DNA from: Forficula auricularia
Lineage: Eukaryota; Arthropoda; Insecta; Dermaptera; Forficulidae
NCBI GenBank assembly: GCA_024734495.1
Contig: JALMQS010000099.1
Location: 67,750,483-67,814,482 of the forward strand
Reading direction: 5' to 3'
Length of the DNA: 64,000 bases
Shown here: positions 1,090-58,490 of the stretch, piece by piece
Numbering within the stretch: the stretch's first letter is position 1
Layout: each line of letters starts with the position of its first letter
Position numbers and translations under genes: made by a program
The notes under the pieces: generated by a model
Databases searched by the model: none
What the model was told of the DNA's origin: nothing
Seen by the model: the letters and a program-made list of their open reading frames with translations, nothing else

Positions 1090-1354
1090 ATTTAGGGAAA
1101 GCGGTGTTGGTTTATAGTGAAACATATTTAACACAGGAGTTTTTAAAAGGGGTGTTTCACAAGTAAAAATAAAAATTAATTTTTTTTTTTTTTTTATATT
1201 TTTGGAGTTTTATTTTAAATACTCTATACATATTTCGGCTTTCTAGCCCTTCATCAGGAGTTTGAGTTTACAAAAAACTTTTTGAAATATGTATATAGTA
1301 TTTAAAATAAAACTCCAAAAATATAATTAAAAAAATTTTTTTTAATTTTTTTAA
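1090..1354 (-). mobile_element. Ribozyme family A inverted dimer (locus A1)
   Basis: An 11-bp direct repeat (ttttataaaac) at 1079-1089 and 1355-1365 bounds the insertion. The left unit reads on the minus strand and contains a full hammerhead core (1215-1266). The right unit reads on the plus strand and begins at about the GAAA of the core (near 1283), so it is 5'-truncated. Both units end in the same tail, which runs into AT-rich sequence and a T-tract. The outer part of the left unit (from 1093) is shared with the family A locus at 58.17-58.49 kb. The structure suggests retrotransposition of a non-autonomous unit; no protein is encoded. Confidence 0.65.
1215..1266 (-). ncRNA. Hammerhead ribozyme motif, family A
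   Basis: On the minus strand: stem I strand ACTC (1261-1258), core CTGATGA (1257-1251), an extra A, stem II GGCT/AGCC with a 4-nt loop, GAAA (1236-1233), then a short AU stem III with a UG loop, and AUA at the predicted cleavage site between 1225 and 1224. GAGT (1224-1221) closes stem I with ACTC. All invariant hammerhead core nucleotides are present. Architecture is type I (open at stem I). Activity is inferred, not shown. Confidence 0.72.
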
Positions 1355-1365
1355 TTTTATAAAAC

Positions 1366-3520
1366 GTTTATTTAAAATCCTAACATTTCTGGAGAATTTC
1401 TCCCTTTATTAATGGAATTATTGAATTTAATTCCATTGTTTTTAATGTTTTTATATAAAATTTAAACTTTAATTATGAGAAAAGTTTTAATAGGATAAAA
1501 TAATTTTGAAATAAAATAAATAGCAATAAATTTTCATTTAGTTATAGTTAGTTATACTAAAATTATTGGCAGTAAAATTTAATTTAGAATGTCTGAATAA
1601 GAAATTCTTATCAATAAAAGATCTTATAAGTTCACTGGAAATAGCCATTAACTACTATATTCCATTGATAAGGGGAAAATTCTCCCGAAACTTTTTGATT
1701 TGAAATAAACTTAAGATTGTATTTAAAAAAAAAAAAAAGATTTTCAATAGAGAACACCCTCGTTGCTCATAAAAAACACTGTAATTATAATTTTCAGTCT
1801 TTTAGAACCGGGCTTCACAAATACTGTTTTTGGTGGATTAGAAAAGTCAATATTGTCCCAGTTTAATTTTGATTAACTAATTAATTAATTAATTTTATCT
1901 TTTCTAATCTCAAAATTTTAGATAATGAAGGAAATTTAGAAAAAAAAATTAAATCTAGAAATGATCGAAATTAAAAAAAAAATTAACAAAAGATCAGATA
2001 TAGACTGTTTTTCTAATATTTACCAAAAATTTTTAGAAAATAATAATTTTTCATAATTCTTTTATTTTTATTCAAGGTAATTTCATCCCCAAAACAATCT
2101 GTATCATTGTTTATTTTCAAAATATTTATTTATTTATTTATTTATAGTAGCTTTATATTAATTTCTTAAAGCAACTTTTTCTAAATATTTTAAAATTCCA
2201 CTGATAGAGTGAGACATTCTTTCGAAACGTTTAAATTAAACATTTTAAGATTGATGTTTTATTAAAGGTTTGTATTTATTTATATTTATAAAACCATCAA
2301 TATTTTTTTTATATCCTTAGATAAGTATATTATAGACAAATTGATTTTTAAACTGAAAGTTTTAATTATTTTTGTTAAGCAATTTAAACCGTTATTTAAC
2401 TTTCGCGGTTCAAATTGCTTAATAAGTACATTATATTTTATGAATATTTCATATTTTTTCTCAAATCGTCCCTGGTTTCTTAAGGAGTTTCGGGACAGCT
2501 TATCTGGTTGATTTAAGAAAAAATCTTTTGTATTTCTGCAGAGTGGCAACTTCTGACAACTAAATATTTTAATAAAATAATGAGGTTAATTTCAAATAAA
2601 AATCTTTGTTTTGGTAATATTAATGAAAAATATTGAGATATTGAGATAAATTTTTTCTCATTATAAAAACGTTTATTTAACCCAAAAACGATTTCAAGAA
2701 ATAGAGTTGAAATTCTAAACTAGTGCTTTTGTTATATTCTGTTGTCTGCAAATAACTTTTTATTTTTTACATTTATGAATAACTAATTAACTAGACTGTC
2801 AAATTTATTAAAAAAAGGTATCATTCGATTCATAAAAGTTGAATTATTGAACTGTATAAATTTGTTGAAAATGGTTTCATTTGTATAGAAGTTATAGCCC
2901 TTTTAAAAGCTTGGTCGGTCCATTTACTTCCATGTTAAAAGGACAATTTTCAATAATTTATTTCTCGGTAATGGGACAGACAATGAACTTCAAATTTCGG
3001 GAATAAATATTTAATGCATCAATGATTCGATGGTAAAAATTTGAGAATTTTCTTAAAAAAATGATAAACAGTCACGAACTCTCTTATGAGAGTGTTCGTA
3101 TATCGCTTACTCTATCTGAAGAGATAACGCCTTGTGAAAGGGTATTGTTGTCTATGGAGATAGGAGATGTTACTGTACCCGACTTGCTTAAGAGCTCTCT
3201 TATCCATTGATATGAGATGTAAACACTCAACTATACTTAGATTGACTGTATTATATAATAGAGCCGACTGCATTGGCATTTTCAAAGCAACTGATCTTTT
3301 AAGAAAAATAAAGCGAGGCTGAATTCTGATGAGAAAACAATCTGAGAGCAGTGGCTGTTTGCGCTGCAAGAGGTGCTGTTTTGCTGCCCTTTATCTTTAC
3401 ATACAATTAATTACAACGATTATACGAACAAGTTGGTCTAGATAGATTGTAGAATTTTTACACGATACTACTAGGCTTAGCCTGCCGCCCGGGGGAACCT
3501 AGTTTTGAATTAATACAAAA
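1366..3520. repeat. Dispersed AT-rich repeat mosaic, no gene
   Basis: No convincing coding sequence. The block at about 1915-2130 recurs at 21845-22050 and, inverted, at 22190-22400 and in part at 37740-37920. The block at about 2610-3075 is repeated in the same orientation at 19365-19820, with only scattered substitutions and small indels. From 3070 to 3440 the sequence is less repetitive and has a short inverted repeat near its ends (gttcgtata at about 3093 and tatacgaac at about 3422), possibly another small DNA element. Confidence 0.5.
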
Positions 3521-5165: not shown

Positions 5166-5167
5166 CC

Positions 5168-5470: not shown

Positions 5471-5589
5471 AAATATATATATCCAGTAGGGTCGTCACAA
5501 GCTATAGGAAGGAAGTGAAACTAAACGTTTCCAAAACTCTGTACACTGTTTGCATTATCGATGAATTAATCATTTTTAATGATAAATAA

Positions 5590-6425
5590 GGAAGTCTAAT
5601 ATTCATATCTTCTTCTTCTTCATCTTCTCTATAGGCTTTCGCCTGTTCTTCCAATAAGAAAAAAAAAGAATAAAGACGTTAGTTTCTTTCTGCGACATCT
5701 TTCCATTTTTTTTCGGCCGCCCTCTGCTCCGAGTGCTACGTGGGCGATTTTCCTTCACGATTTTTGCAAGGCGGTCATCCGTCATTCGTTCCACATATTC
5801 CCCCCATCCTCTCTTTCTCACATCGATCCATTCCACTATATCCTGGATTCCGCTTAGTTCCCTTAGATCATTGCTGCGGATTCTATCCCTTAATGTTTTC
5901 CCGTTTATAGCCTTTATTATTCTCATCTCTGTTATTCGGAGTAGTTTATGGGTGGTAATTGTTGATGCTCTGGTTTTTGCTGCATATGTCAACACTGGAC
6001 GTACGCAGGTCTTATAAATTCGTACTTTGCTTTTTGCTGACATATATTTGTTTTTCCAGACCAAACCATATAGACATTCAGCTATCCTAGCTCCTTTTGT
6101 TACTTGGGTTTTAACCTCTTTGCTGAGATCTCTGTGCTCCGAAATCTCGGCTCCCAAATAGTTAAATTTTTCAACTTGATCTATTTTTAAGTTTGACTTC
6201 ACACTTAAGCTGTTCTTTCGCTATCACAATACATTTTGTTTTTTCAATGGATATTTCCATATTTAATCTTTCTACTATTTGATCGAATTGTGATAAGAGA
6301 GTTTGCAGATTTTGCTCGCTGTCCGACACCAAAACACGTCATCAGCATAACACACAGCCTGTATGGAGTTTTCTTCCATTTTGTATCCAATCCGTGGATG
6401 GATTGGCTTTATATTCCATGTCGAT
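5590..6425 (-). pseudogene. 5'-truncated non-LTR retrotransposon, RT C-terminal part
   Basis: The minus-strand frame 6202-5603 encodes a typical region after the RT catalytic domain: KFNYLGAEIS near its start, then KVRIYKTCVRPVLTYAA, RIIKAINGKTLRDRIR, and a W-rich basic tail ending in GRPKK. Upstream, in another frame, GYKMEENSIQAVCYADD is readable; the YADD catalytic box is at 6349-6338. A stop and frame change separate the two parts. The fragment ends in a CTT/AAG-rich tail near 5605. It lacks the endonuclease and the upstream RT motifs, so it cannot be autonomous. The family resembles endonuclease-RT LINEs common in insects. Confidence 0.8.
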
Positions 6426-6429
6426 TTAA

Positions 6430-8607: not shown

Positions 8608-8639
8608 CGGTAAGCTCAACTCAGCAATTTATTTTATTT

Positions 8640-9925
8640 CAATGATTTATATGTATTATATGATAATTTTAAATGGTAGTATTGTGATGGACTGACTATA
8701 TATATATAATATCGATTCCATTTTATTTTTTAGTCAATGATCTATGATATTATTTAAATAAATACAAATCTTTTATAGAACAATCTAGAAACGTTTATTA
8801 AAAATCCAGACTTTTTAGGTGAAATTCACAGGTGGGTCTGTCAATATAAATTTACAATTGCATTTTTTTCAATTTCTTTTTATTAATTAATTGGTTTTTA
8901 ATTTTAAAACTCACTAATAAATAATTCATTAGAAATATTATTACATATATTAAAATTAGGAAATTTAATAAATTAGAGGTATCTTCTATTGGAGACGGAG
9001 TGGTAGAACTTAATGCTGAATTGATGTAAAGGTACCCAAGGATTAGGAAAACCACAAATTCTGAATAAAATAATTTATTAGAACATAATTTTTATCCTAC
9101 TAAAAAAATACAAAATTCAGAGGATTGTACATCTTTCTTCGGGATTTAAAAGGGTCAACGAAGGAACGCCCCTCTGTGTATATTAATATTTTTAATTTCA
9201 ACTAAATTCAAAAAGTTTGCAAAAAATAAATTAAATTTTATTCCTGTTTTATTTAATTATGGTTTCAAATAATAATCAACTTTTTTTACTTGAATTTAAA
9301 AATATAAAAATATATTGCTTTTAATTATATAAAACAAGCAACGGTTGGTCCGCCAGGTACTTAAGATTGACAGTAAGAGAGATGATCAGATTTCGATTGA
9401 AATCGAATCCCAAATTAAGGAGAGAGGGTTCTTAAAAAATTAAAATTATCAAATTTTCAAACTAAAACAAACAAACAGACAAAAAATAGATTTCACTAAA
9501 AAGAGTCCTAATAAAATAATCAAAAAGTCATTATTTTTTTTCAGGGACCAAAATAGGGGGGGGGTGTTCAAAATAGAACTATCAATATAAGTCCTTTAGA
9601 CGCTTTTATTGATTTGTTTAAAATTTCTCCTATGCAGTCTATAAAACCTTAGTATAAAAACATTGATAGTGACCCAGGGGGTTAAAAATAATGTAAAATA
9701 ATAAAATTTTCAAACAAAAATCGAAGAAAGCTGATATTTACATTAGAAGACTCTCATTTACAAGTCGAAATTATTATTTACTAATGGGCCCAAAATGGGG
9801 GAGGGCTCTAAATTATAAAATTTTCAATCTAAAAAACCAAGCTAGCTGAAACTTAATATTATTCATGTTTTAATATAAAATTATAAACATTATTTAAATA
9901 ATAAAAACTTGTAAATGATTATAAA
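8640..9925. other. AT-rich repeats, no gene
   Basis: The start (8755-8830) resembles the dispersed repeat at 1070-1090 and 1355-1400. Around 9120-9190 there is a remnant of the ribozyme family C tail region (a 'cttcgggatttaaaagggtc' phrase inverted relative to 10.19 kb). G-tracts at 9551-9560 and 9675-9684 belong to a low-complexity repeat. Nothing coding was seen. Confidence 0.4.
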
Positions 9926-9929
9926 TTAG

Positions 9930-10290
9930 TATACCTGGATCACCGAGCGATGCTCGGTAATTTTTTTGATTCAGTTAAAATTGATATATTAATATTATTT
10001 TAAATTTTAAATTCAGGTAAAAAGGTCGATTTTTAATCGGAGCCAAAATAAAATGAAATTGAAATAAAACTGAATTTATTTTTTTGCCAACGTTTACACT
10101 CGCTATGGCCATCATCACACTGGGCATAAAGTTTTGAATGTAATTTCAATTAAAAATAATATTAATATACACAGAGGTTCTTACGTTGACCCTCTTAAAT
10201 CCTGATGAAGGAGTTAAAATCCTTCGAATTGTCGGCTTTTTTAAGAGAATGAAATTGATATTCTAATAAATTATCTTATAGAAAAATACC
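9930..10290 (+). mobile_element. Ribozyme family C-related unit with upstream palindrome
   Basis: This composite repeat begins with the palindrome ACCGAGC-gat-GCTCGGT (9943-9959) and runs through a 'caacgtttacac' block into a plus-strand hammerhead-like motif (10190-10248). The same order occurs at 44.56-44.87 kb and, more diverged, at 33.05-33.30 kb. The block at about 10090-10125, read on the minus strand, resembles a decayed second hammerhead (GATGATGGCCATAGC, then AAACGTT), suggesting an old head-to-head pair. No clear target duplication was found. Confidence 0.5.
10190..10248 (+). ncRNA. Hammerhead-like motif, one core change
   Basis: CTGATGA (10202-10208) is intact and is followed by an AGGA/TCCT stem II. 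GAAA is changed to GAAT (10226-10229), which should impair folding. GTC follows at 10231-10233. Stem I is well kept: inner TC/GG plus an outer 7-bp helix TCTTAAA (10193-10199) with TTTAAGA (10240-10246), separated by an internal loop. Probably a recently inactivated ribozyme. Confidence 0.55.
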
Positions 10291-12450: not shown

Positions 12451-12507
12451 GTGTTTTCTAACTTTAGAACTTCTGGTTAAAAAAATACAGAATAAATAAT
12501 TTTTTTG

Positions 12508-12912
12508 CAACGAAATTTTCTCTGGAGAGAGACGGACTGGTAGAAATTTTAATTGAATGTAATGGAAGGCAGCCCAGGGGTAGTGAGGAAAGAAAAAATT
12601 AACATATATCAAATAAGGTGTAATTTATTGGAATCCTTCCTCTTTTCTTAATTAGAAAAGGAGGCAAAAAAAAATAGTTTTTCTATGCCTTTGCTAAAAA
12701 AAGAAGAAAGTTTTGAACACTACTGTGGAGAGAAGAAGGAAACATTTTATTTGTTTTCTTTATTGACCCTTTGAAACCCTGAAGAAGGAGGGAAAAATCC
12801 TCCGAAACGTCGGTTTGAAAGGAAAAGAGGAAGGATTCCAATAAATTACACCTTATTTGATGTGTTAATTTTTTCTTTCCTCACTACCCCTGGGCTGCCT
12901 TCCATTACATTC
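12508..12912. mobile_element. Ribozyme family C inverted dimer (locus C1)
   Basis: A 19-bp target duplication with one mismatch (agaataaataatttttttg at 12489-12507; cttttt version at 12913-12931) flanks the insertion. The left unit lies on the minus strand and covers only the 3' part (about 12551-12650 is complementary to about 12825-12912). The right unit is on the plus strand and carries a complete hammerhead core (12773-12817). The left copy extends about 45 bp further at its 3' end, ending in a 'gagagagacgg' block also seen at the right end of C2. Non-coding; C2 at 23388-23814 is its closest relative. Confidence 0.7.
12773..12817 (+). ncRNA. Hammerhead ribozyme motif, family C
   Basis: AAACC (12774-12778) pairs with GGTTT (12112+700, i.e. 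12812-12816) as stem I. The core CTGAAGA (12779-12785) plus an extra A is followed by stem II GGAGG (12787-12791)/CCTCC (12799-12803), then GAAA (12804-12807) and CGTC (12808-12811), with cleavage predicted after C12811. Stem III is just A-C/G-U with no loop, so a monomer could not close it. The palindrome ACGT could instead pair with another copy, as in the double hammerheads known from some viroids and newt satellite RNA. Confidence 0.72.
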
Positions 12913-13001
12913 AGAATAAATAATCTTTTTGAATGATTTTATTGCGATTTTGAGCGATGTAGATATTTATAGTATAGGCATAAATGAACAATTTATTTTA
13001 T

Positions 13002-13227
13002 TGAAGGAGACAATAAAAAGAGTGTGTCTTCTGCTGGAATTATTAATTGTATTTTTAACGAGACTATAGTTTCGAGAGCTTTGCCCTCTTCATCAGTCTA
13101 TTACACTAGAAACTATAGTCTCGTTATAAATAAATTAAAAATGTATAATTACAGCAGAAGACACACTCTTTATTGTCTCCTTCAATTTATAAAAATTCTG
13201 CTACCCCCAGCAAAAAACTTTCAACTT
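13002..13227. mobile_element. Ribozyme family B inverted dimer (locus B1)
   Basis: A perfect 12-bp target duplication (aatttattttat) lies at 12990-13001 and 13228-13239. The left unit is on the minus strand with a full hammerhead (13051-13108). The right unit is on the plus strand and starts at the GAAAC of the core, so it is 5'-truncated. The uninterrupted target is still visible in paralogous repeats at about 15188-15225 and 26160-26200. Outer ends share the 'cagaagacacactctt' tail with the 48.3-kb and 43.3-kb loci. Confidence 0.7.
13051..13108 (-). ncRNA. Hammerhead ribozyme motif, family B
   Basis: Minus strand: CTGATGA (13096-13090), extra A, stem II GAGGGC/GCTCTC (one G-U pair, AAA loop), GAAA (13073-13070), then stem III C-TATA-G and the classic GUC cleavage triplet (13064-13062). 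Stem I starts with GA/TC, followed by an internal loop and an outer AU-rich helix, as expected for type I hammerheads with loop-loop contacts. Every invariant core position is kept. This is the most canonical motif of the window. Confidence 0.75.
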
Positions 13228-13891
13228 AATTTATTTTATATTTAAGTTTATTATCATTAATTAATTTCTCCAGCCTTTTCATTTTTTTTATTATTTAATA
13301 AATGTGTGAGTGAGTGTCTCTTTAATTAGAATCTAATCAAAAGGAAATTTACTAAATATGGAGCAAGGGATCCTGCCTGCCTGGAGAACTTATTATTGAA
13401 TTCAAGTAAAATTTTTTTTTTCGCTCATTGTGTTGAAAAATGTTTGAAACGTGGAGAAAAATCATATTCAAGCATTTTGTATTGTCTGTGTCTAATCGAA
13501 TTTAAATATCCTCCTCCTACTTAAGGAGGTCCTTTCGCCGCCAGAATGTTAAATAAAAAATATTAGATTATAACTATAACTTAATTTTTTATTCAGGAAT
13601 AGTAATTATTTCGATTCTTATAATATTTTTTATAATCAGTAACGAGGCTTTTTGAATCACAATTAATTTTTTATAATAGTTTATGACTCTATCTATGCTT
13701 TGGTGAAGTTTCAATCACAACATTAGCGTGCAAATTTTTGAAAATAAAATTTTTTTTATGTAAACATTTTCTTAGAGTCTTATGGAAAATTAAAATCTTA
13801 CACATTCTCTTGAATTATACTACTATTAGTTGAATTGATAAAGTTAAACAAAAACTAAAAATTAGCTTTTTGAAACATTCAGGTTTCTTTC

Positions 13892-14651
13892 TACTTTACC
13901 ATACCATGTGTGGTCAAGTATTGTAATAGTGCATGAAAAAAGTGTTTTTTTTTTCAAAATATCTCAAAAACGGCTGAAACTATTTTGATTAAAAAAATTG
14001 AGCTAAACCATGGCTCAACAAAAAAGCTCTAACAAGTGAACATCGAAAAATTATATTTTTCGAGATAATAATTGTTTTGTCAAAATGTCTGTTAGCTAGT
14101 CCGTTAGTCTGTGCATTAACAAATTTTTGTGGACGAGCTAGCTCAAAAACTAGTGTGAATATCGAAACCAAATTTCCCCCGTAGTTTTGGTCCATTGAGA
14201 TTCAGAGCTGATTAGATTTTGGTGCATATCGACCCAAAATAAAGGGGGTGGAGGGTGGTCAAAAAATAAAAATCTAGGCCGTTTGAGCAAACTCAGCCAA
14301 ATTTTCTATACATAATCAGTGGACCCCCAGAAGTCTAAAAATGCAAAAACTAACCGCCCAAAATGGAGGGAGGGGGTGGTGTAGGGTCAAAAAATGAAAA
14401 TCTTGGCCATTTACCAAACTCAACCAAATTTTGTATACATAGTGGACCCCCAGAAGTCTAAAAATGCAAAAACTAACCGCCCAAAATGGGGGGAAGGGGG
14501 GGGTCAAAAAATGAAAATCTTGGCCATTTACCAAACTCAAACAAATTTTGTATACATAATCAGTGGGACACCAGAAGTATAAAAATGCAAAAAAAAAACC
14601 CCACCCTACATGATTATAAATAATTTTAGGGGTCAGGTTGTATGGTAAAGT
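13892..14651 (+). mobile_element. ACTTTACCATACA-family transposon, copy a
   Basis: Short terminal inverted repeats (ACTTTACCATACC at the left, TATGGTAAAGT at the right) bound a 760-bp non-coding element. It contains 'ctcaaaaacggc', a 'gtctgttagc' block and an internal tandem repeat of about 122 bp (copies starting at 14331, 14454 and 14575) rich in poly-G and poly-C. Other copies: 26246-26941 (+), 46390-47303 (-), 61211-61566 (+, 5' truncated) and 63400-63497 (- fragment). Frames in the tandem part are chance by-products. Confidence 0.6.
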
Positions 14652-16056: not shown

Positions 16057-16865
16057 GCAGTAAAAATCCGTTTTTTAGTAAGAACGGGTTCTTACTAGTT
16101 CAAACGCGTTTCACTGAATACCTTTGTGAGAACTAGAATTTACTGATGTTGGTTGAGTTTGGTCGAGGGGTGAACCGCGACCTAATATGCTGTACACCTA
16201 CTTCCACTTGTACTTTCAAATATTTCCAAGTACTTCCAAATATTTTCAAGTACTTCCAAATATTTCCAAGTACTTTCAAATATTTCCAAGCACTTTCAAA
16301 TATTTCCAAGTACTTCCAAATATTCCCAAGTACTTCCAAATGTTTTCAAGTACTTTCATATATTTCCAAGTACTTTCAAATATTCCCAAGTACTTCCAAA
16401 TGTTTTCAAGTACTTTCAAATATTTCCAAGTACTTTCAAATATTTCCAAGTACTTCCAAATATTGCCAAGTACTTTCAAATATTTCCAAGTACTTTCAAA
16501 TATTTCCAAGTACTTCCAAATATTTCCAAGTACTTCCAAAGAGGTGTACACCTACTTCCAATCACGGATCACCCCTCGAGTTTGGTCCAAAGGTCTAGAA
16601 TCTTCATTTTTGACTTTCTTTAAGCTTTTTTAAACGAAAATGTCAAAAATTACATCTTTATTAGAGGCAAATTTGTAGAGGATGTAATTTTGACATTTTC
16701 GTTTAAAAAACACCCAAAATGAGGCGGAAGGTCAAAAATGAAGATTCTAGACCTTTTGACCAAACTCAACCAACATCAGTAAATTCTAGTTGCCACAAAG
16801 GTATTCAGTGAAACTCATTTTAACTAGTAAGAACCCGTTCTTACTAAAAACGGGTTTTTACTGCA
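16057..16865. mobile_element. Foldback transposon with internal satellite
   Basis: Long inverted repeats of about 150 bp or more: the left arm starts TGCAGTAAAAATCCG and the right arm ends CGGGTTTTTACTGCA. Both contain 'aagaacgggttcttacta', itself palindromic. A shorter copy of the family without the satellite is at 41969-42379. The centre holds a second palindrome (about 16632-16712, 'aaaatgtcaaaaattaca' and its complement). A 20-bp tandem array (16211-16540) sits inside the left half, bounded by a 16-bp direct repeat. No transposase. Confidence 0.7.
16211..16540. repeat. 20-bp tandem array (~16.5 copies)
   Basis: The unit is caaatatttccaagtactty, with scattered substitutions (tattcccaag, tattttcaag, tattgccaag). 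Because 20 bp is not a multiple of 3, the array reads open in several frames on both strands as a 20-residue period (for example KYFQVLPNIFKYFQIFPSTF); these frames are not evidence of a protein. The direct repeat TGTACACCTACTTCCA lies on each side (16191-16206 and 16545-16560), and the sibling foldback at 41969-42379 lacks the array, so it arose inside this copy. Confidence 0.85.
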
Positions 16866-22700: not shown

Positions 22701-23900
22701 CAGGATGGGGCATAGAGATCTACCACATTTTGAGAGGTATAAAAAAATGAAAAAATTTAGCTAGAAAAAAACTGAATATATTTTTGAGAAATACATAAAA
22801 AAAAATTTTTTTTAATGTGTTTTAAACATTATATTAGACAAAAAAAGAGCGAGGGGTGGTTAGTTTTTGCATTGCTAGCCTTCTGGGGGTCCACAGAATA
22901 TGTATACAAATTTGGTAGAGTTTTGTCGAAAGGACTCAGGAATTTTTTATTATTGAAAAATTCTAGTCCTTTCTGACAGGCTCTACTCAAATTTCCTGTA
23001 TACATATTCTGTGGACTTCAGATGGGCTAGAAATGCAAACCAACCACCCAATGGGGGAGGGGTCAAAAACAAAAGTATCCTAACCCTTTCAACAATGTAT
23101 ACAAAATTTGGTTAGTTTTTGGATTTATAGCCTTCTAGGGGTTCACAGAATATGTATACAAAATTTAGTTGAGTTTCGTCAAAAGGGCTATAATTTTAAT
23201 TTTTGACCATAGCCTCCATTTTGGGTGGTTATTTTTTGCATTTCTAATCTTTTTGGGGCCCACAGAATATATATACAAAATTTGGTTGAGTTTCATCTTT
23301 GACCTCCCCCCTCCCCTTTTTTCTGATAATGATTAAAACACATTAAAAAAATATATTTTATGTTCTTTTAAAAAATATATTCAGTTTAATTGAATGTAAT
23401 GGAAAGCAGCCCAGGCAGGAGGAAAGAAATTAACACATATCAAATAAGGTGTAATATATTGAATCCTTCCTCCTTTCCTTTCAAACCGTTTCGGAGGATT
23501 TTTCTCCTTCTTCATGGTTCAAAGGATCAATGAATGAAACAAATAAAATGTTTCCTTCTTCTCTCCACAGTAGTGTTCAAAAAGAAGAAGGAAATATTTT
23601 ATTTGTTTCATTCATTGACTCTTTGAAACCCTGGAAGAAGGAGGGAAAAATCCTCCGAAACGTCGGTTTGAAAGGAAAGAGAGGAAGGATTTCAATAAAT
23701 TACACCTTATTTGATATGTGTTAATTTTTTCTTCCTCACACCTTGGGCTGCCTTCCATTACATTCAATTAAAGTTTCTACCAGTCCGTCTCTCTCCAGCG
23801 AAAATTTCGGTGCAAAAAAATATATTCAGTTTTTTTATAGTTAAATTTTTTCATTTTTCATACCTCTTCAAAAGGTGGTAGATCTTTATGTCCCACCCTG
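22701..23900. mobile_element. CAGGRTGGGRCATA-family DNA transposon, interrupted
   Basis: The left terminus CAGGATGGGGCATAGAGATC and the right terminus, read in reverse, CAGGGTGGGACATAAAGATC are inverted repeats that extend through 'taccac' and the 'gaggtat' block. The element is about 770 bp once the nested ribozyme dimer (23388-23814) is discounted. The internal 'gggtccacagaatatgtata' block is repeated several times (22.89, 23.14 and 23.26 kb). No transposase frame. A truncated relative is at 4240-4610. Confidence 0.6.
23388..23814. mobile_element. Ribozyme family C inverted dimer (locus C2), nested
   Basis: An 18-bp perfect target duplication (aaaaaatatattcagttt) at 23370-23387 and 23815-23832 shows insertion into the 22.7-23.9 kb transposon. 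The left unit (minus) and right unit (plus) both carry hammerhead remnants. On the minus strand (23520-23491) the core starts ATGAAGA and two bases are missing after GAAACG. On the plus strand (23626-23670) the core has one inserted G (CTGGAAGA), while stem I AAACC/GGTTT, stem II GGAGG/CCTCC, GAAA and CGTC are all kept. The two units face each other head to head. Confidence 0.7.
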
Positions 23901-24040
23901 CTTATATATTTTCTTTATATTGACAATTCTGCTACTATCGCCAATAAAATATTTTCAAATTATGTTGTCTTCATCGAATCTTGTCATTTTTTTTTTACTT
24001 TCACTTATATATTACTTATAGTATGTTAAAGTATTAAATT

Positions 24041-25230: not shown

Positions 25231-25352
25231 CACAGTTTTTAATCTGTAAACTCCTGATGATGGACTAATATTCTGAAATATATTGAGTTTGTATAAACCT
25301 CTTTGAGTTTTATTTCATTCTCTGTGAAACTACACTCCCTTTACTTTATTAA
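25231..25352 (+). mobile_element. Single ribozyme unit, family D
   Basis: About 120 bp is present here but absent from the otherwise matching repeat at 29.21-29.36 kb, where 'gacgaaaaaaaagggtaata' passes directly into 'acatccatccatcc'. The insert holds one plus-strand hammerhead motif (25247-25293). Unlike the other loci it has no inverted partner. Exact ends and target duplication are uncertain in this AT-rich context. Confidence 0.5.
25247..25293 (+). ncRNA. Hammerhead ribozyme motif, family D
   Basis: Stem I is the strongest here: AAACTC (25249-25254) pairs perfectly with GAGTTT (25286-25291). The core CTGATGA is at 25255-25261 and GAAA at 25276-25279. Stem III is the palindrome ATATAT, followed by T as the cleavage nucleotide (AUU triplet, allowed by the NUH rule but usually slow). 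Stem II is weak (GGA/TTC with one G-U pair). Core nucleotides are intact, activity doubtful. Confidence 0.6.
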
Positions 25353-26245: not shown

Positions 26246-26941
26246 ACTTTACCATACAGGGTATGGTCAAGTATTGTAATCATGGATGAAAAAAGTGTTT
26301 TTTTCCTTCTTTTTTTCGAAATATCTCAAAAACGGCTTAAACTATTTTGGTTAAAAAATTGAGCGAAACCATGGCATTTCGCTCTACAAAAAAGCCTTAA
26401 TAAGTGAACATCAAAAAAATTATATTTTTTGAGATAATAATTGTTTTGTCGAAATATCTGTTAGTCTGTCTGGTTGTCTGTTAGTTAGTTAGTCTGTGCG
26501 TTACCAAATTTTTGTGGACGAGCTAGCTCAAAAACTAGTGTGAATATCAAAACAATATTTAACAGGTAGTTTTGGTTCATTGAGATTAAGAGCTGATTAG
26601 ATTTTGGTGCATATCGACCCAAAATTAAGGAGTGGAGGGGAGGTTAAAAATTAAAAATCTAGGCCATTTGAGCAAACTCAACCAAATTTTGTATACATAA
26701 TCAGTGGGACCCCAGAAGTCTAAAAATGCAAAAACTAACCGCCTAAAATGGGGGTTGGGGGGGAGTAGGGTCAAAAAATGAAAATCTAGGCTCTTGTACC
26801 AAACTCAACCAAATTTTGTATACATAATCAGTGGGCCCCCAGGAGTCTAAAAACGGAAAAACTAAGCCCCCTTCCCTACATGATTATAAATAATTTTATT
26901 AAATATTAAATATAAGTGAGGGGCCAGGTTGTATGGTAAAG
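26246..26941 (+). mobile_element. ACTTTACCATACA-family transposon, copy b
   Basis: It begins ACTTTACCATACAGGG and ends TATGGTAAAG, with the same internal order as copy a: 'ctcaaaaacggctta', a repeated 'gttagtctg' stretch, 'gacgagctagctcaaaaac', then two copies of the roughly 120-bp 'aagtctaaaaatgcaaaaac' unit. Non-coding, about 0.7 kb. Confidence 0.6.
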
Positions 26942-33084: not shown

Positions 33085-33300
33085 ATTTTTTTTGACAACG
33101 TTTTAACGGGCTCCGGATATCAACAAGGCATTGCAATGGACAAAGTTTAAAACTTAATTTCACTTAAAAATAATATTAATATACACCAAGGTGAATTTGT
33201 TGACCTTTTAAGCCCTGAAAAAGGAGGGACGACCCTTCGAATCGTCAGCCTTTTTAAGTAATGAAAATTATGTTCTAATAAATTATTATATTATGAATTT
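33085..33300 (+). mobile_element. Decayed ribozyme family C-related unit
   Basis: The same order as 9.93-10.29 kb: an 'caacgttttaacggg' block, then a plus-strand hammerhead remnant at 33211-33256. The core is CTGAAAA (33215-33221, G8 changed to A). Stem II GGG/CCC remains, GAAA has become GAAT, and a CGTC follows. These core changes should abolish cleavage. Confidence 0.45.
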
Positions 33301-40568: not shown

Positions 40569-40583
40569 ATAAGATATATTATT

Positions 40584-41011
40584 AAAGTTGCTATCGGGGA
40601 AAAAGGACTATATTTTTATGTAAATAATTTTTATTTTGTTGACTTCTTCAGGGCTCTAAAAAGTGATAAGGCCTCAATTAATACAGATTATAACATCTTC
40701 AAATCAAAATCAAACTAACTAAGAGAGAATGATAAAAATGACAAATATGCATAGGAAGATAATTATTTGGTATGTAAAATGAGATTTTTTTGTGTGTATT
40801 AATTTGTTTTTTGTAATGTATTGAAATTGATTTTGATTTCAAGATGTTATAATCTGTATTAATTGAGGCCTTATCACTTTTTAGAGCCCTCAAGATGTCA
40901 ACAAAGTTGATGAAACGTTGGCAACAAAATAAAAATTATTTGCATAAAAATATAGTTCTTATTTCCCGATACCAACTTTAATAATTTAATTGATGGACAT
41001 AACTAATCAAA
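40584..41011. mobile_element. Ribozyme family E inverted dimer
   Basis: A 15-bp perfect target duplication (ataagatatattatt) at 40569-40583 and 41012-41026. Arms of at least 110 bp (about 40584-40710 and 40830-40985) face head to head around a 120-bp unique spacer. The plus unit has a hammerhead relic (40884-40925): GCC/GGC stem I, CTCAAGA (G5 changed to C), stem II TCAAC/GTTGA, GAAA, CGTT. The minus unit keeps a perfect CTGAAGA (40651-40645) but has lost stem II and the GAAA box by deletion. Each unit alone is therefore probably dead. Confidence 0.65.
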
Positions 41012-43090: not shown

Positions 43091-43440
43091 TTTTGGAGAC
43101 TGACTGGTAGAAATAATTTATTGGAACATCATTAAAAACAGCCATTTCAGAGGATCTTCGCTTCTTCTTCAGGGTTTAAAATTGTAAACCTATAGAAAAC
43201 AAACAAGCCACTTCATGAAGGAGTGAAGAAGAGACGTCGGGTTTTAAGAAGATGAAAATGACGTTCCTATAAAGTCTTTTAAAGGAGACAATAAAAGAGT
43301 GTGTCTTCTCCTGGAAAAATAATTTATTTATTTATTTAAAAAGAGAGTATAGTTTCGAGGACTTTGCCCTCTTCACCAGTCTCTTATAATTGATTCACAG
43401 AAACTTTCAATCTTTTATTCAGAATTTTATTTTTTTGGAC
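43090..43440. mobile_element. Abutting decayed ribozyme units (families C and B)
   Basis: 43.10-43.28 kb has family C landmarks: 'gactggtagaaa', minus-strand CTGAAGA (about 43161-43167) and a plus-strand 'gagacgtcgggtttt'. It is followed by a family B unit on the minus strand, whose core is CTGGTGA (43379-43373, A6 changed to G) with stem II GAGG/CCTC, GAAA (43356-43353) and ACTC in place of GTC. Both look inactive. Confidence 0.5.
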
Positions 43441-46389: not shown

Positions 46390-47303
46390 ACTTTACCATA
46401 CAACCTGGCCCCTCACTTATTTTTATATATAAATTATTTATAATCATGCAGGGGGGGTTAGTTTTTCCATTTTTAGACTCCCGGGACCCGCTGATTATGT
46501 ACCTATACAAAATTTGGTTGAGTTTGGTGAATGGCAAAGATTTCCATTTTTTGACCCTTCCCCCCATTTCGGGCGGTTAGTTTTTGCATTTTTAGACTTC
46601 TTGGGTCCCACTGATTATGTATACAAAATTTGGTTTAGTTTGGTAAATGGCCAAGATTTTCATTTTTTGACCCTCCGCCCCCCCCCCCCCATTTCGGGCG
46701 GTTAGTTTTTGCATTTTTAGACTTCTTGGGTCCCACTGATTATGTATACAAAATTTGGTTGAGTTTGGTAAATGGCCAAGATTTTCATTTTTTGAACCTC
46801 CGCCCCCCCCCCCCATTTTGGGCGGTTAGATTTTGCATTTTTAGACTTCTGGGGGTCCACTGATTATGTATACAAAATTTGGTTGAGTTTGCTCAAACGA
46901 CCTAGATTTTTAATTTTTAACCCCCCTCGACCCCCCTTAATTTTGGGTCGATATGCACCAAAATCTAATCAGCTCTTAATCTCAATGGACCAAAACTACG
47001 TGTGAAATTTGGTTTCGATATTCACACTAGTTTTTGAGCTAGCTCGTACACAAATTTGGTAACGCACAGACTAACTAACTAACTAACAGACATTTTGACA
47101 CAACAATTATTATCTCGAAAAATATAATTTTTTCGATGTTCACTTATTAGAGCTTTTTTGTAGACCTAAATGCCATGGTTTCGCTCAATTTTTTTAATCG
47201 AAATAGTTTCAGCCGTTTTTAGATATTTTGAAAAAAGAAGGAAAAAAACCACTTTTTTCATGCACGATTACAATACTTCTGACCATACCCTGTATGGTAA
47301 AGT
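46390..47303 (-). mobile_element. ACTTTACCATACA-family transposon, copy c (longest)
   Basis: Ends ACTTTACCATACAACC and TGTATGGTAAAGT. Inverted relative to copies a and b. It carries four copies of the internal unit starting near 46477, 46592, 46720 and 46844 (spacing about 115-128 bp), each with a poly-C tract of different length. The 'aactaactaactaacagaca' run near 47077 is the complement of the 'gttagttagttag' run in copy b. Non-coding. Confidence 0.65.
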
Positions 47304-48264: not shown

Positions 48265-48575
48265 CATACAGTAAGTAAATTGAAAGTTTTTTGGCGAGAG
48301 TAGCAGAATTTTTATAAATTGAAGGAGACAATAAAAGAGTGTGTCTTCTGCTGGGATTATAAATTTTTAATTTATTTACAACCAGAATATAGTTTCCAGA
48401 GGTTTGCTTTTCATCAGTCTATTACAATTGATTCATAGGAATGGTACCATTCATAGATTAATTCCTGTGAATCAATTGTAATAGACTGTTGAAGAGGGCA
48501 AAGCTCTCGAAACTATAGTCTCGTTATAAATAAATTAAAAATTAATAATCCCAGCATAACACACACTCTTTTATA
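48265..48575. mobile_element. Ribozyme family B inverted dimer (locus B2)
   Basis: The left unit is on the minus strand: core CTGATGA (48417-48411), but stem II is disrupted and an extra G precedes GAAA (48396-48393). The right unit is on the plus strand: core CTGTTGA (48486-48492, A6 changed to T), with stem II GAGGGC/GCTCTC, GAAA (48509-48512) and TATAGTC all intact. The units meet head to head around 'aatcaattgt' on both sides of 48.45 kb. A clear target duplication was not found; the right end is truncated in the 'cacactctttta' tail. Confidence 0.6.
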
Positions 48576-49380: not shown

Positions 49381-49390
49381 AGGTCTGGAC

Positions 49391-49587: not shown

Positions 49588-49589
49588 TA

Positions 49590-50480
49590 GGGTTTTCCAA
49601 TAAGATGTGTTATTTTGATATTCAAAGAAAAATGGCATTTTCTGAGATAAATGATCGGATGTTTATTTCAATGTAAAGAGAAAGGTATGCCATTAATAAT
49701 GGAAAACAATATCAGTCAAATGGTCACCACGGCTACGCTTACAGGACCATATCCTTTTCATGAAATTTTCCATCACCAAATCGCAAAGTGGCTGCTGTAT
49801 GCCCTCAATAGCTTCTCGAATTCCATCTTTGAGGTCTTGAATCGACGCTGGACTGTTGGCGTAGACCTTATCTTTCACGTGGCGTGTTAAATCACAAGAT
49901 CTCGGTGGCCAATTGTGATCACCTCTTCGAGAGATAACACGGTCCGGAAACAATCTGAAAAGACACCACGTTGTTGATGATCGGCCGGCTTGAGTTCTTG
50001 TGTTAACTGAACTTTATAAGCCTTAAGACCCAAGTCATTATGCAAAATACGGTGTAATGACGTTTGTGGAATGCCCAATTCCAAAGAACGACGAGTAATG
50101 GACAAACCTGGGTTTTCTTCAACACTTTGGGCTACAGCAGCAATATTCTCAGTTGTTCTTGAGCGACGTGTACGGGTTTTATTCTTCACATCACTAACTT
50201 GTCCCAACAGCTCGAATTTTTCCACCAATTTCTGTATTGCGGACCGACAAGGTGCTTTACGACGACCCAAAATTGTTTTAGTTTTACGAACCTTCGCTGC
50301 CAAATTTTCACCAATTTTATAGTGAATTTTAATAATTTCAATGCGTTGTTGAAGCGTATATCGTTCCATTTTTATTAATGGCGTAGTTTCTACTTGTCAA
50401 ATGTCAAAAAATTACAGCCAAAAGTGAGATCTACCGAAATAGCGGGCTATTCAAAATAACACCTCTTATTGGAAAACCCT
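49590..50480 (-). mobile_element. Internally deleted mariner-like element
   Basis: Terminal inverted repeats start GGGTTTTCCAATAAG (left, 49590; right, reverse complement ending 50480), within a TA-rich junction. The minus-strand frame 50369-49887 encodes the N-terminal helix-turn-helix region (MERYTLQQRIEIIKIHYKIG, then SITRRSLELGIPQTSLHRIL). The frame 49953-49693 encodes the C-terminal end (WPPRSCDLTRHVKDKVYAN to GDHLTDIVFHY). The catalytic middle, including the aspartate triad, is missing, so the element is non-autonomous. The deletion joint is near 49955-49985. Confidence 0.8.
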
Positions 50481-50482
50481 TT

Positions 50483-53592: not shown

Positions 53593-53652
53593 TAATATTA
53601 ATATATAAGGTCACTATCAAAATAGAGTGTTTTAATTTATCCACGATTAAGA

Positions 53653-54629
53653 TTACATAATTATTCGGTAATAATACTGAAAAATTTCCAATTTTTTTAA
53701 TCTTACGCATAGATGATTCAATTGATTAATACTAATATCCATATCTCTGACATTAAGTAGTTTCAACGTTTCGATTTTATGTTTAGAAATGGTCAAATAC
53801 GAAATCAGCTCTAAATAATTAAATTCCATCAATACTATTCCCTTAAGATTAGGAAATTTGTCTAGATCTAATATTACATTTTCTTTCGGATTGAATAAAC
53901 TTATAATTTCAACTTCTGGACAATATGTTGCAAAATCATCAAGTGTTTCTAACGTTGTGAATGCATCATAAATTTCGGTTAGTTTCAATCTTGCAGGAGA
54001 TTCACAATTAGAGAGATAAACAGATAAGCCTGCTTCTAAATTTTGGTACATGCCCAAAGATTTTAAATTTGGTAAAAGTTTTAATAATTTAGCACAATCT
54101 CTTGGAGATAAATTATTACAATTAATTTTTTCAATTTTCTGGAGACCATTTTGAACATCGGGATCATGCATATTAAAATCTTCCTTGATCAGAAGATCAT
54201 AGATGGTGCAATTATAGTCATAACATTGCACACGAATATCTTTTAGTTTGGTACATTTTTTCAAAAGCGTTTTGAATCCTCGCTTAAACATAGAATCGAT
54301 TGGGAATTCAGAGAATTCAATCCTTTCTATATTCGGAGCTAATTTCCAAATCATTTCAAACAAGGATGGTTTAGTCCAACAATTCCAGGGTCTTTGTACA
54401 AAACTGATGAATTTGGTATCCTTGCCGAGAAAAATAAGAAGACTTTTCAAACGGATTTCTTCTGTAATTGTAATATCCGCCAGAATATTTTGCAAAATTC
54501 TATATTTTGTCGATCGATGCACTTTATTATTAATAAATTCTCTTTCTATTTCGAAATTAAATTTGTGTTCCTTCTTCAGCTCGTTAATGTATTTAGGCGT
54601 AATTTCCGTTACCGTATCATCCACATGCT
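53653..54629 (-). CDS. LRR-like protein gene, terminal exon
   Basis: Minus-strand exon of 977 nt ending in TAA (53655-53653). The acceptor is TTTATCATTGTTTCAG ending at 54630; the exon then begins AG|CAT|GTG|GAT. It encodes about 325 residues with repeated leucine-rich patterns such as LLKLLPNLKSLGMYQNL, FPNLKGIVLMEF, KIETLKLLNVRDMDI and LNHLCVRLKKLEIFQ, preceded by a charged helical N-terminal part. This resembles the LRR half of F-box/LRR-type insect proteins, but no F-box is seen, so the function is not assigned. No signal peptide or membrane segment. With exon 1 the protein is 355 aa. No interrupting stop or frameshift. The exon ends about 60 bp from the Tc1 derivative at 53592. Confidence 0.75.
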
Positions 54630-55413: not shown

Positions 55414-57064
55414 TACACTCGGGAGCAGCTAAATCGACTCAACCTCTAAGCGCGCATACAAAGTTGTTTTTCTTTTAAATGGCCAAGCCGATATTTATAA
55501 AATAAATATGTCTTTAAAGCTTATTTATTTAGCTTTATATTGATATCAATTTCAAGCAAATCGGCTCATTACTTTTTAAATTATGTGATCTGAATGACAA
55601 TGAAAGGAAAAAAGGGTGTAAAGGAAAGGAAAAGTAGGGATGTTCAAAATTAAAATAAAATTGACATTTTAAACATAACAAAGAAAATTTATTTTCTTAA
55701 TAATTTGTGTTGCCCCTAGCTTTTATAACAGCCCGCATGCGATTCTGCATCGACCCGATGAGTTTTTTATAAAATCTTGAGGGATGCCTTCCATTCATCT
55801 AACAAAGCTGTCTTAAGCTCATCAATGGTCGAAGGTACCGAATTTCTGGCTCGAACCCTTTGTTTGAGGTGGTCCACATATGTTCGATGGGATTCATGTC
55901 TGGGCTGAGCGCTTTGGCCACTCTATGGTGTGGATAGCGACTTCGGAATCATGTATTGCCGAGTGACCATCTCGCAGTGTGGCACCGGGCATTATCATGC
56001 ATCAGTAAAAAATTTTCCCCAATAAATCCTTTATAAGAGACAATATGATGCAGGAGAATGTCAGCAATGTAACGGTCAGCTGTTAGACCCCCTCCCCGGC
56101 CTCCACCAGGCACAAAAACAATATCTGTTTTTCCCTCCAGAGAAATGCCACCCCAAATCATGCAGGAACCACCACCATGTGACACTGTTTGAGAGAAACA
56201 GCATTGAGAAAATCGCTCTCCCTGACGCCTGTAGACCCGACTTCTCCTGTCACTTCCATGAATGCAAACTCTACACTCATCTGTGAAAAGACAGCCCGCC
56301 ATTGGTCGATACTTCAATTGAGATGCTCTCGAGCAAATTGAAGTCGAGCTGACGGTGACGTGAGGTTAATTTTGGTCCAGAGGCAGGTCTTCTGCAAGTG
56401 AGGTTGGCTTCCTTCAAGCGTCTTCTGACTGTCCACCGACTGACAGCCAGACCTCGAACTTCTCTCAGCTTGCTGATGGACATCGACACCAGTGAGGTGG
56501 CGGTTTCGGAGAGACGTCGTGACGATAAAACGGTCATCCCTCTCAGACGTGCACCGGCGGCGGCGGGTATTCGGTCTCCGAGTGAAGGCACCAGTCTCCT
56601 GAAACCTTCTGTAGACTCTTGAGACAGTAGACTGACTTAAGTTCAATTGAAGAGCGACTTCTCTTTGGCTAAGGCTCTGTTCCAACAGAGCAACAACTTG
56701 AGCGGCAACTTCTGGCTTAGTATCCATGATTTTCTAAAAACAATTGTGTCAATTTGCGTAGATGTGTTCAGGTCAATTGCTGAAAATCGATTAATAAGAA
56801 TAATTGGTTACATTGGTTTTTATAAGGAAATTGTAACTAACAAGTAGCGGCAGCTAGGAACAGCAATTTTTCCAGTTCAGCCATTCGGATCACATAATTT
56901 AAAAAGTAATGAGCCGATTGGCTTGGAAATTGATATCAATATAAAGATAAATAAATAAGCTTTAAAGATATATTTATTTTATAAATATCGGCTTGGCCAT
57001 TTAAAAGAAAAACAACTTTGTATGCGCGCTTAGAGGTTGAGTCGATTTAGCTGCTCCGAGTGTA
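55414..57064 (-). mobile_element. Tc1-like transposon with broken transposase
   Basis: Inverted repeats of about 180 bp: left from 55414 (tacactcgggagcagctaaa), right ending 57064 (its complement with one G less). TA at both borders is the expected Tc1 target duplication. The inner end of the repeats is around 55595 and 56882. It encodes one transposase gene on the minus strand, now frameshifted, and lies in the intron of the LRR gene in the same orientation. Confidence 0.88.
55700..56727 (-). pseudogene. Tc1 transposase pseudogene (DD34E type)
   Basis: The ATG at 56727 opens MDTKPEVAAQVVALLEQSLS with a helix-turn-helix (SQREVALQLNLSQSTVSRVY). A frame change near 56590-56320 leads to the DNA-binding second half and then the frame 56317-55949 with the catalytic core: FTDECRVCIHGSDRR (first Asp), LLMHDNARCHTARW (second Asp). 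Further on, after another frame change, SPDMNPIEHMW supplies the Glu near 55887. At least three frame breaks mean it makes no functional enzyme. The family is the common animal Tc1 group. Confidence 0.85.
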
Positions 57065-58173
57065 GTTGGATTAAAACCTAAAAATTTGGTCATATTTGGA
57101 ATGATTTCTATATATCTTGATTATTAATCAAATATCTTTGGAATAAATAAGGGCTCATTAAAAATGCTCAACTTTATCAATATATTTATTATAAAGAAAT
57201 TGTTTTTTCAGTGTACATGATGATAAATGTTGGCCCCGCACATGAGACCGATTTCAATTTTTTAATTTTTAATTGGTTTCAATTTCCTTATTAGCACGGG
57301 GAATTGCCTAGGGATATTTTAGAGGGGGAGTTGGGAAAGAAAAGGGAAATGCCCAGATTAAAATATTTCTTTCAAATAATTAACAATATGGGGTAAGAGT
57401 TATTTAGAGAGATCAAAGAGTGGAGACGGGTGATTGCGTCAAACCAGTCTTAGTACTGTGTACTCACTAATGATGATGGAAAATTAAATAATGCTATATA
57501 GTATCAAAAGTTAATTATATTAGAAGTAAATTTTATTTTTGAAAGACGAAGATTGAGTTATTGTGGGTATCGTTCGTAATCAAGGGCCGTAGAGAGAATA
57601 ACCGGACCCGAGGGGGGGGGGTCTAGAGTCTAAGGCAGTGGTTCCCAATCTGGGGGCAATCGCCCCCAACTGGGCGATTCGGGTTACCAGGGGGGCAATA
57701 AATAAGTGGGGGCGATGAGTATTCAAAGGGGGAAAAATTCAAATAGTACTGTAGAGTAGAAGTTGCCGTGATCGATAACAAAGCAGTTTTCAAACTTAAA
57801 TTTATTTTTTCAAATTTCAACTGTCAACTTTCTTAATTTTTCCAGATTCCAATTTAAAAATGGAAAAATGTACTCCTGTTTTTTTTTTAATGTACGTCAA
57901 TGATCTTAGTTAATTATTTAACTTCTTTGTTCTTAAAAAATATCTTTAAAAAATGTACATTTTAATTTTTTTTCTATTTTATTTAAGAGTGACCGGATAA
58001 AAATGCTTTGGTTGTTTTTATATACGGTAATAAAATTGTTTAAAATAATACAACTGCTTTATTATTTACACTTTACTTCAAATTAAAATTAGGCATACAA
58101 TCAGAGGGGCAGCCACCGGGGGGGGGGGGGGTAAGAACCGTTTCTTATGGCAAACTAACCATAATTAAATAAA

Positions 58174-58490
58174 GTTAAGTTTAGGGAAAGCGGTTTTGGT
58201 TTATAGTGAAACATATTAATAACAGGAATTATTTAACGGGTTATAGTGGTATTTCACAAGTGGAAATAAAATTAAAAAAATAAAAGTTCTTTTAAAATTA
58301 TTTTGGAGATTTTTTTATTTATATCTATACATATTTCGGGCTATGAACCTTTTCTGTTAAACCTCCTGATGAAGGGTTCATAGCCCGAAATATGTATAGA
58401 GATAAATAAAAATCTCCAAAATAATTTTAAAAATTTTATTTTAAATTTTATTTACTTTACCACTATAACCCGTTAAATAATTCCTGTGCC
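58174..58490. mobile_element. Ribozyme family A inverted dimer (locus A2), nested in hAT
   Basis: A 12-bp target duplication taattaaataaa at 58162-58173 and 58491-58502. The left unit (minus) starts inside the stem II loop (about 58348) and runs out to 'tttagggaaagcgg' (58190). The right unit (plus) has the complete hammerhead (58360-58405) and ends in 'aataattcctgtgc'. Arms are complementary from about 58229 to 58487. A1 at 1090-1354 is the nearest relative, sharing the outer 80 bp. Confidence 0.72.
58360..58405 (+). ncRNA. Hammerhead ribozyme motif, family A
   Basis: CTC (58363-58365) and GAG (58399-58401) form stem I. The core CTGATGA (58366-58372) is followed by an extra A, stem II GGG/CCC with a 7-nt loop, GAAA (58387-58390), a short AU stem III (ATA/TAT, TG loop), and AUA with cleavage predicted after 58398. 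The core is intact and stem I covaries with the 1.2-kb copy (ACTC/GAGT there, CTC/GAG here). Stem II is short, so in vivo activity is uncertain. Confidence 0.68.

What the first reader, a model, noticed from the sequence alone, without database searches (positions are those of the whole stretch)
1215..58405. A cluster of hammerhead self-cleaving ribozyme motifs in at least five unrelated-looking repeat families
Five sites keep all core nucleotides of a type I hammerhead in order (stem I, CTGANGA, stem II, GAAA, short stem III, NUH, stem I): 1215-1266 (-), 12773-12817 (+), 13051-13108 (-), 25247-25293 (+), 58360-58405 (+). About nine decayed relatives lie at 10.2, 23.5, 23.65, 33.2, 40.65, 40.9, 43.37, 48.4 and 48.5 kb. 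Outside the fold the families share little sequence, yet stem I partners differ in compensating ways (AAACC/GGTTT, ACTC/GAGT, CTC/GAG, AAACTC/GAGTTT). Hammerheads are known in retrozymes and Penelope-like elements; such density and family diversity in 64 kb is striking.
Basis: partly seen in the sequence, partly recalled or inferred. Interest (0 to 1): 0.92.

Follow-up and report, generated by a model that had tools for sequence, protein, structure and literature searches.

The report
Palindromic Penelope retroelements carrying hammerhead ribozymes
The stretch holds remains of short jumping DNA elements that carry a small RNA-cutting motif; each was inserted as a head-to-head pair of copies, and their layout suggests how this poorly understood class of retroelement copies itself into DNA.

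Summary
The five hammerhead-like motifs are present where stated and exceed chance, although no Rfam hammerhead model matches. They sit near the centres of short head-to-head palindromic insertions that belong to Penelope-like retroelements (PLEs): direct repeats most often of 12 bp at both ends, a tail of about 45 nt on one arm only (27 of 29 and 23 of 24 copies in two families), and no PLE frame inside. The same genome holds GIY-YIG frames of PLE size; in 20 of 30 fetched loci a hammerhead of the same form follows on the same strand, and two of these loci show the identical inverted, one-tailed, duplicated-target layout with the nuclease inside. The 'unrelated' families fall into groups by tail. 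The density is ordinary for this genome. Palindrome centres differ copy by copy: one arm reaches a near-constant 5' end, the other stops in or near the ribozyme, which suggests reverse transcription from both ends of the cut target. Two oddities recur: an extra base before stem II (19 of 22 sites) and a self-complementary stem III (21 of 22), which suits a dimer. Cleavage is untested.

The parts
1090..1354 (-). Element A: palindrome with hammerhead 1215-1266 (-) and T3 tail 1096-1123 (-); 11-bp direct repeats 1079-1089 and 1355-1365
8966..10279 (+). Element P: interrupted inverted arms (9065-9167 / 10177-10279), decayed hammerhead 10196-10240 (+), T2-like tail 8992-9009 (-); ends not settled
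   Evidence: no convincing target duplication
12501..12911 (+). Element B: palindrome with hammerhead 12773-12818 (+), T2 tail 12529-12546 (-); 13-bp direct repeats 12488-12500 and 12912-12924
13002..13227 (-). Element C: palindrome with hammerhead 13054-13102 (-), T1-like tail 13196-13211 (+); 12-bp direct repeats 12990-13001 and 13228-13239
23388..23814 (+). Element R (relative of B): hammerheads in both arms, 23626-23671 (+) and decayed 23481-23521 (-); T2 tail 23774-23791 (+); direct repeats of at least 14 bp at 23370 and 23815
25248..25296 (+). Hammerhead of family D; no palindromic partner found in the window; a palindromic D copy with two hammerheads is in L014
   Evidence: not found by model R1
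33209..33253 (+). Decayed hammerhead T
   Evidence: 18.6 bits
40584..41011 (+). Element U: palindrome, decayed hammerhead 40883-40926 (+), remnant near 40651 (-); 15-bp direct repeats at 40569 and 41012
43134..43178 (-). Decayed hammerhead, followed by a T2 tail at 43096-43113 (-)
43342..43385 (-). Decayed single arm W of the C/X family
   Evidence: 10.0 bits, E 2.4
48273..48574 (.). Element X: palindrome with decayed hammerheads in both arms, 48394-48423 (-) and 48480-48527 (+); T1 tail 48293-48308 (-); no target duplication found
58174..58490 (+). Element E: palindrome with hammerhead 58360-58405 (+), T3 tail 58185-58212 (-); 12-bp direct repeats 58162-58173 and 58491-58502

Best explanation
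The sites are the minimal, dimer-type type I hammerheads of Penelope-like retroelements (PLEs), here in short members without a frame. An element RNA runs from a near-constant 5' end, through the hammerhead, to a downstream start site for reverse transcription. A PLE enzyme (reverse transcriptase plus GIY-YIG nuclease, encoded elsewhere in this genome) makes a staggered cut of about 12 bp and starts reverse transcription of element RNA from both target ends. One end starts at the inner site (no tail) and usually copies to the RNA 5' end; the other starts about 45 nt further out (tail) and usually stops in or near the hammerhead. The two cDNAs are joined head to head, giving a palindrome with one tail between direct repeats. 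SHOWN: motifs, palindromes, direct repeats, one-sided tails, variable centres, PLE frames with the same kind of termini. INFERRED: the RNA intermediate, priming from both ends, mobilisation in trans. UNTESTED: ribozyme activity.
For: Palindromes centred on the motifs. Flank words of >=10 nt shared in 22 of 29 B and 18 of 24 E copies against 3.3% and 0.7% of mismatched flanks, commonest length 12. Exactly one tail in 27 of 29 and 23 of 24 copies. Centres differ copy by copy; long arms end near a fixed point (-49 in 16 of 21 E copies), short arms vary. 150 scored GIY-YIG matches of 3423 candidates, open frames to 864 aa, three in a row 2.9 kb apart; RVT_1 and GIY-YIG in one frame in L071 and L088. 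A hammerhead of the same form downstream on the same strand in 20 of 30 GIY-YIG loci; T1 tail shared with window families C and X. L069 and L073: GIY-YIG between inverted hammerhead arms, one tail, 12- and 14-bp repeats. Literature: head-to-head pseudo-LTRs with optional tail (PMC3846280, passages); cutting and extension of both strands and two adjacent start sites (PMC11167929, parts 1-2 of 4).
Against: No RNA seen. No partner PLE found for tails T2 and T3. X and P have no convincing target duplication; D in the window has no second arm; 3 of 24 E copies could not be parsed. Copies were the best matches to a query with the same layout, so ratios of tails and arm ends are biased. Arms of one insert are only slightly more alike than arms of different inserts (95.5 v 94.6% and 95.7 v 94.6%), which does not tell one RNA from two. 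Single-RNA folds of A, C, D and E are not, or only partly, hammerheads. The anole PLE inserts in vitro without a working hammerhead (PMC11167929).
Confidence: 0.82

Rival explanations
1. Snap-back: one cDNA is made, its 3' end folds back and copies itself, giving the palindrome (self-priming, proposed on an antisense template for Adineta PLEs in PMC3846280).
For: Some centres are hairpins with small loops, e.g. L044 and L014; the published proposal (passages).
Against: A simple snap-back would copy the tail and the target into the second arm; a tail is on exactly one arm in 50 of 53 copies and the flanks are direct repeats.
Confidence: 0.2
2. MITE-like DNA transposons with long terminal inverted repeats that carry the motif by descent.
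For: Inverted arms, small size, no frame, near-constant duplication length in family E.
Against: One-sided tail, copy-specific centres, duplication length that varies in family B, same layout around GIY-YIG-bearing copies. That no DNA transposon group has 12-bp duplications is recalled, not searched.
Confidence: 0.03
3. The hammerheads are inert relics: the fold is inherited, but cleavage plays no part in the present elements.
For: Within family B the motif is hardly more conserved than the rest (97.2 v 95.9% column identity, rank 54 of 358 windows). Rfam does not match. The extra base departs from the standard core. The anole PLE inserts in vitro without a working hammerhead, which is silent without protein (PMC11167929).
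Against: Stem I strands match each other between families while the core stays. Decay after insertion is expected of any retroelement copy.
Confidence: 0.25

Closest known systems
Penelope-like elements with inverted pseudo-LTRs (Adineta vaga, PMC3846280; Anolis Poseidon PAc, PMC11167929)
   Same: Hammerhead in the terminal repeat, head-to-head arms, optional tail on one inverted repeat, target duplications, GIY-YIG plus RT enzyme in the genome
   Different: The window elements have no frame and are only about 230-440 bp; duplications are mostly about 12 bp (8-10 bp in the Adineta passages)
Minimal PLE hammerheads thought to act as dimers (Cervera and de la Pena 2014; Lunse et al. 2017; seen only as described or cited in PMC7761336, PMC6155905 and PMC10085705)
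   Same: Type I, stem III nearly absent, thousands dispersed in animal genomes, some in PLE pseudo-LTRs
   Different: The extra base before stem II could not be compared, as those papers are not held
Metazoan non-LTR retrozymes (PMC7229834, passages)
   Same: Short frame-less repeats with type I hammerheads, probably moved by PLE enzymes
   Different: Retrozymes are tandem repeats with standard hammerheads; these are head-to-head single insertions with minimal ones
SINE-LINE pairs (recalled)
   Same: Short elements share the reverse-transcription start region with an autonomous partner
   Different: Here the partner is a PLE, shown for the T1 tail only

Membership tests
Type I hammerhead ribozyme, minimal PLE form | Core CUGANGA / GAAA / UH in type I order with stems I and II | tested here: met
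Type I hammerhead ribozyme, minimal PLE form | Stem III able to form | tested here: inconclusive
   Self-complementary 4-8 nt words in 21 of 22 sites: fits a dimer, hardly a monomer
Type I hammerhead ribozyme, minimal PLE form | Recognised by an Rfam hammerhead model (a detection rule, not a definition) | tested here: not met
   the genome-wide search with RF00163 found nothing either, but rang in no control genome
Type I hammerhead ribozyme, minimal PLE form | Self-cleavage | not testable with these tools
   Needs in vitro work
Penelope-like element (non-autonomous derivative) | RT and GIY-YIG in one frame in copies with the same kind of termini | tested here: met
   for the T1 tail group; no partner found for T2 and T3
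Penelope-like element (non-autonomous derivative) | Frame inside the window copies | tested here: not met
   Elements are 226-428 bp in the window and none of the 10 of 52 long window frames scanned is a PLE protein; hence 'non-autonomous derivative' only
Penelope-like element (non-autonomous derivative) | Inverted repeats with one-sided tail and target duplication | tested here: met
Metazoan non-LTR retrozyme | Tandem monomers of about 150-450 bp | tested here: not met
   Head-to-head, single insertions
MITE / TIR DNA transposon | Two equivalent ends and a fixed interior | tested here: not met
   One-sided tail and variable centres

The most novel reading that the evidence does not exclude
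PLE insertion is two-headed by design. Two element RNAs are held together by the hammerhead's self-complementary stem III (the dimer form of the ribozyme) and loaded on a dimeric PLE protein; each target end gets its own RNA, one started at the inner and one at the outer start site, which would explain why nearly always exactly one arm has a tail. The hammerhead fold, or its cut, then ends the second cDNA, so that short arms stop in or near the ribozyme and the two cDNAs are joined head to head. The ribozyme would be a template-pairing and stop device for integration rather than only a processing one.
Probability: 0.15. Interest if true: 0.85.

Novelty: new variant of a known kind. Interest (0 to 1): 0.52.

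Why it matters
How Penelope-like elements insert, why their repeats are inverted, what the optional tail means and what their hammerhead is for are described as unsettled in the papers seen (PMC11167929, PMC3846280, PMC7761336). This genome offers many small natural insertion records with target duplications, one-sided tails and copy-specific junctions, so that two-ended priming can be tested by counting and with a PLE protein of the kind already purified. These minimal hammerheads also escape Rfam, so their numbers in genomes may be under-counted.

Tried and rejected
Rejected: five unrelated families (they group by tail); exceptional density; a MITE origin; the Rfam microRNA matches, all below their cut-offs, several of them lying on inverted repeats.

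Led nowhere or unclear: extra conservation of the motif within family B; arm identity as a test of one or two RNAs. A first mapping of E short-arm ends by local alignment gave artefacts (13 of 24 values at the edge of the reference) and was replaced by a parse of the centres (21 of 24 copies). The idea that short arms start at the ribozyme's cut fits B (-7 to +28) but not E (-12 to -40), so template cleavage is not shown. Alignments A1 and A2 misplaced stem I or the core and were not used for counts. Of the 25 sites (3116, 54404, 54579) were judged chance or coding and left out. The L071 frame has no relative among solved structures by sequence.

Not done: genome counts of tails and cores (tool busy); a search for the partners of tails T2 and T3; structure predictions; 42 of the 52 long window frames.
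Full report
WHAT WAS CHECKED. The window lies in an unnamed 1.06 Gb genome of 845 contigs and is AT-rich. The five reported motifs have the core nucleotides in type I order. Against resampled sequence they are beyond chance (3 against 0.06; 17 against 3.6 for the bare core pattern). Rfam does not see them.

COMMON FEATURES. One search covered the window and the flanks of 52 loci for core plus stem II (at least 4 bp) plus GAAA, with no condition on stem I or on stem III beyond its first A. Of 25 sites I left out 3 as chance or coding. In 19 of the remaining 22 one extra base separates CTGANGA from stem II. In 21 of 22 the bases after GAA begin with a self-complementary word (ACGT, ATAT, ATATAT, ATATGTAT with G-U pairs, ACTATAGT). 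Two of the 22 are one site seen from overlapping loci (L016, L034), and L021/L022 are a duplicated region. A 4-nt self-complementary word cannot close a hairpin, so a proper stem III needs two RNAs; this is the dimer form described for newt, viroid and PLE hammerheads (PMC6155905 and PMC7761336, passages). Stem I strands match each other across sites: 51 pairs over 18 sites against a mean of 16.7, maximum 41; for the 11 sites picked without stem I in view 27 against 8.0, maximum 25. Stem II was part of the selection, so its pairing is circular.

THE SITES ARE PARTS OF PALINDROMIC INSERTIONS. Inverted repeats centre on many of the motifs. For A, B, C, R, U and E direct repeats of 11-18 bp flank the unit; X and P show none that convinces, and D has no second arm here. 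For B, 40 copies were scored of 6340 first-look candidates and 30 loci fetched; for E, 40 matches of 1306 candidates and 30 loci. The longest word shared by left and right flank is at least 10 nt in 22 of 29 B and 18 of 24 E copies, against 3.3% and 0.7% of mismatched flank pairs; the commonest length is 12 (L022 dropped from B, six duplicate or segmentally duplicated loci from E; both sets include the window copy). A D copy in L014 and an F copy in L022 show 13- and 12-bp repeats; F in L006 shows none.

TAILS. One end carries about 45-50 extra bases. Exactly one arm has the tail in 27 of 29 B copies (2 none found) and 23 of 24 E copies (1 both). It is mostly on the arm opposite the single complete hammerhead: 24 to 3 in B; 14 to 4 in E, 5 E copies having hammerhead-like matches in both arms. 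These are best matches to a query with that layout, so this ratio is biased; the table suggests the other side in 7 of 40 B copies. Three tail types recur in the window within 3 mismatches: T1 four times (C, X, and alone at 1-16 and 23927), T2 four times (P, B, R, 43.1 kb), T3 twice (A, E), against 0.13, 0 and 0 expected. The D copy in L014 has a T3-like tail (82% over 34 nt to A); the window's own D copy has none.

LINK TO PENELOPE-LIKE ELEMENTS. GIY-YIG (PF01541) gives 150 scored matches of 3423 candidates, open frames up to 864 aa, and three on one strand 2.9 kb apart on contig C563, the tandem order reported for PLEs (PMC11167929). L071 and L088 hold RVT_1 and GIY-YIG in one frame; RVT_1 is below its cut-off in L071 and above it in L088. 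Of the 30 GIY-YIG loci 23 hold a hammerhead of the same form. In 20 it lies downstream on the same strand, of two types (6 and 14 loci; L067 and L068 look identical, so not all are independent). T1 within 2 mismatches is in 16 of 30 and follows a hammerhead on the same strand at 109-210 nt in 11 (one of these, L076, is a C-type copy). C and X share T1 with these PLEs at 82% over 57 and 90% over 41 columns. In L073 and L069 the GIY-YIG match lies between inverted hammerhead arms, with one T1 tail and direct repeats of 14 and 12 bp: the layout of the frame-less units with the enzyme gene inside. No partner was found for T2 and T3.

HOW EACH PALINDROME FORMED. The centres differ copy by copy. In the 21 of 24 E copies that could be parsed, the longer arm stops at -49 from the predicted cut in 16 and between -45 and -61 in all; the shorter stops anywhere from -12 to -40. 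The -49 limit is set partly by the reference, the window copy's own arm; the centres themselves show that likeness between copies ends within a few bases of there. In B the longer arm runs to the edge of the reference used (-93 in 27 of 29; -90 and -91 in two), and the shorter starts between -7 and +28 in 29 of 29. In window copies A and C the short arm starts at GAAA. So an RNA with a near-constant 5' end seems to have been copied in full on one side and in part on the other, anew at each insertion. As the tail is on one arm only and the flanks are direct repeats, each arm seems to have had its own start of reverse transcription, one per target end. This fits the report that the anole PLE protein cuts and extends both strands and uses two adjacent start sites in an AC-rich region (PMC11167929, parts 1-2 of 4), and the description of head-to-head pseudo-LTRs with an optional tail (PMC3846280, passages). 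The latter authors favour self-priming; the one-sided tail speaks against simple snap-back. Not shown: the RNA, its promoter, which enzyme moves which family, one RNA or two (one search does not decide).

THE RIBOZYME'S ROLE. Cleavage was not testable. In the anole element the hammerhead is silent without protein and its mutants still insert in vitro (PMC11167929). Short-arm ends fall in or near the hammerhead in both families, but the samples are biased and the families differ (B around the cut, E in and upstream of stem II). A structural stop would fit both; template cleavage fits only B.

DENSITY. 18 raw hits in 149,760 bp of flanks of 52 loci, 0.25 expected, is about one per 8 kb; the window has five in 64 kb. 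Extrapolated from this non-random sample, the genome holds of the order of 100,000. A random sample could not be drawn.

NOVELTY. PLE hammerheads, inverted pseudo-LTRs and tails are known. Frame-less, many-copy palindromic families that share a tail with PLEs of the same genome, and the near-strict one-tail rule, were not described in the passages seen. The searches that answered listed no paper devoted to this; four failed, and two key papers on minimal PLE hammerheads are not held. Hence 'new variant of a known kind', with that caveat.

Noticed in passing
window 1-16 and 23927-23942: T1 tails (exact and 2 mismatches) without a hammerhead beside them; the first may be the end of an element cut off by the window edge.
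   Followed up: no
window 55422-57057: Inverted repeats of 132 nt, 98% complementary, 1372 nt apart, around a frame with helix-turn-helix matches (HTH_23, 56317-56733 -): probably a DNA transposon.
   Followed up: no
window 49890-50396 (-): Frame with a DUF4817 helix-turn-helix domain, likely a transposon remnant.
   Followed up: no
window 5603-6202 (-): 199-aa frame that looks to me like the end of a non-LTR retrotransposon reverse transcriptase (recalled); no Pfam match.
   Followed up: no
window 53653-54624 (-): 323-aa frame without a Pfam match; possibly host coding sequence.
   Followed up: no
L022:1908-2231 (and L021): An F-family palindrome with a 12-bp direct repeat (ATAAGTAAGTAT) lies against a B copy: nested or neighbouring insertions.
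   Followed up: partly
window 46510-46890, 14289-14612, 26674-26871, 23161-23293: A repeat of about 130-140 bp, in short arrays and single copies on both strands.
   Followed up: no
E-family copies L035, L038, L040, L041: Several long arms read TTCAGTTTTCTG at their 5' limit, which resembles an arthropod transcription initiator (recalled): a possible start site of the element RNA.
   Followed up: no
window 48388-48517 and 16572-16768: Rfam microRNA matches below cut-off that fall on inverted repeats; apparent microRNA hits at such elements deserve caution.
   Followed up: no
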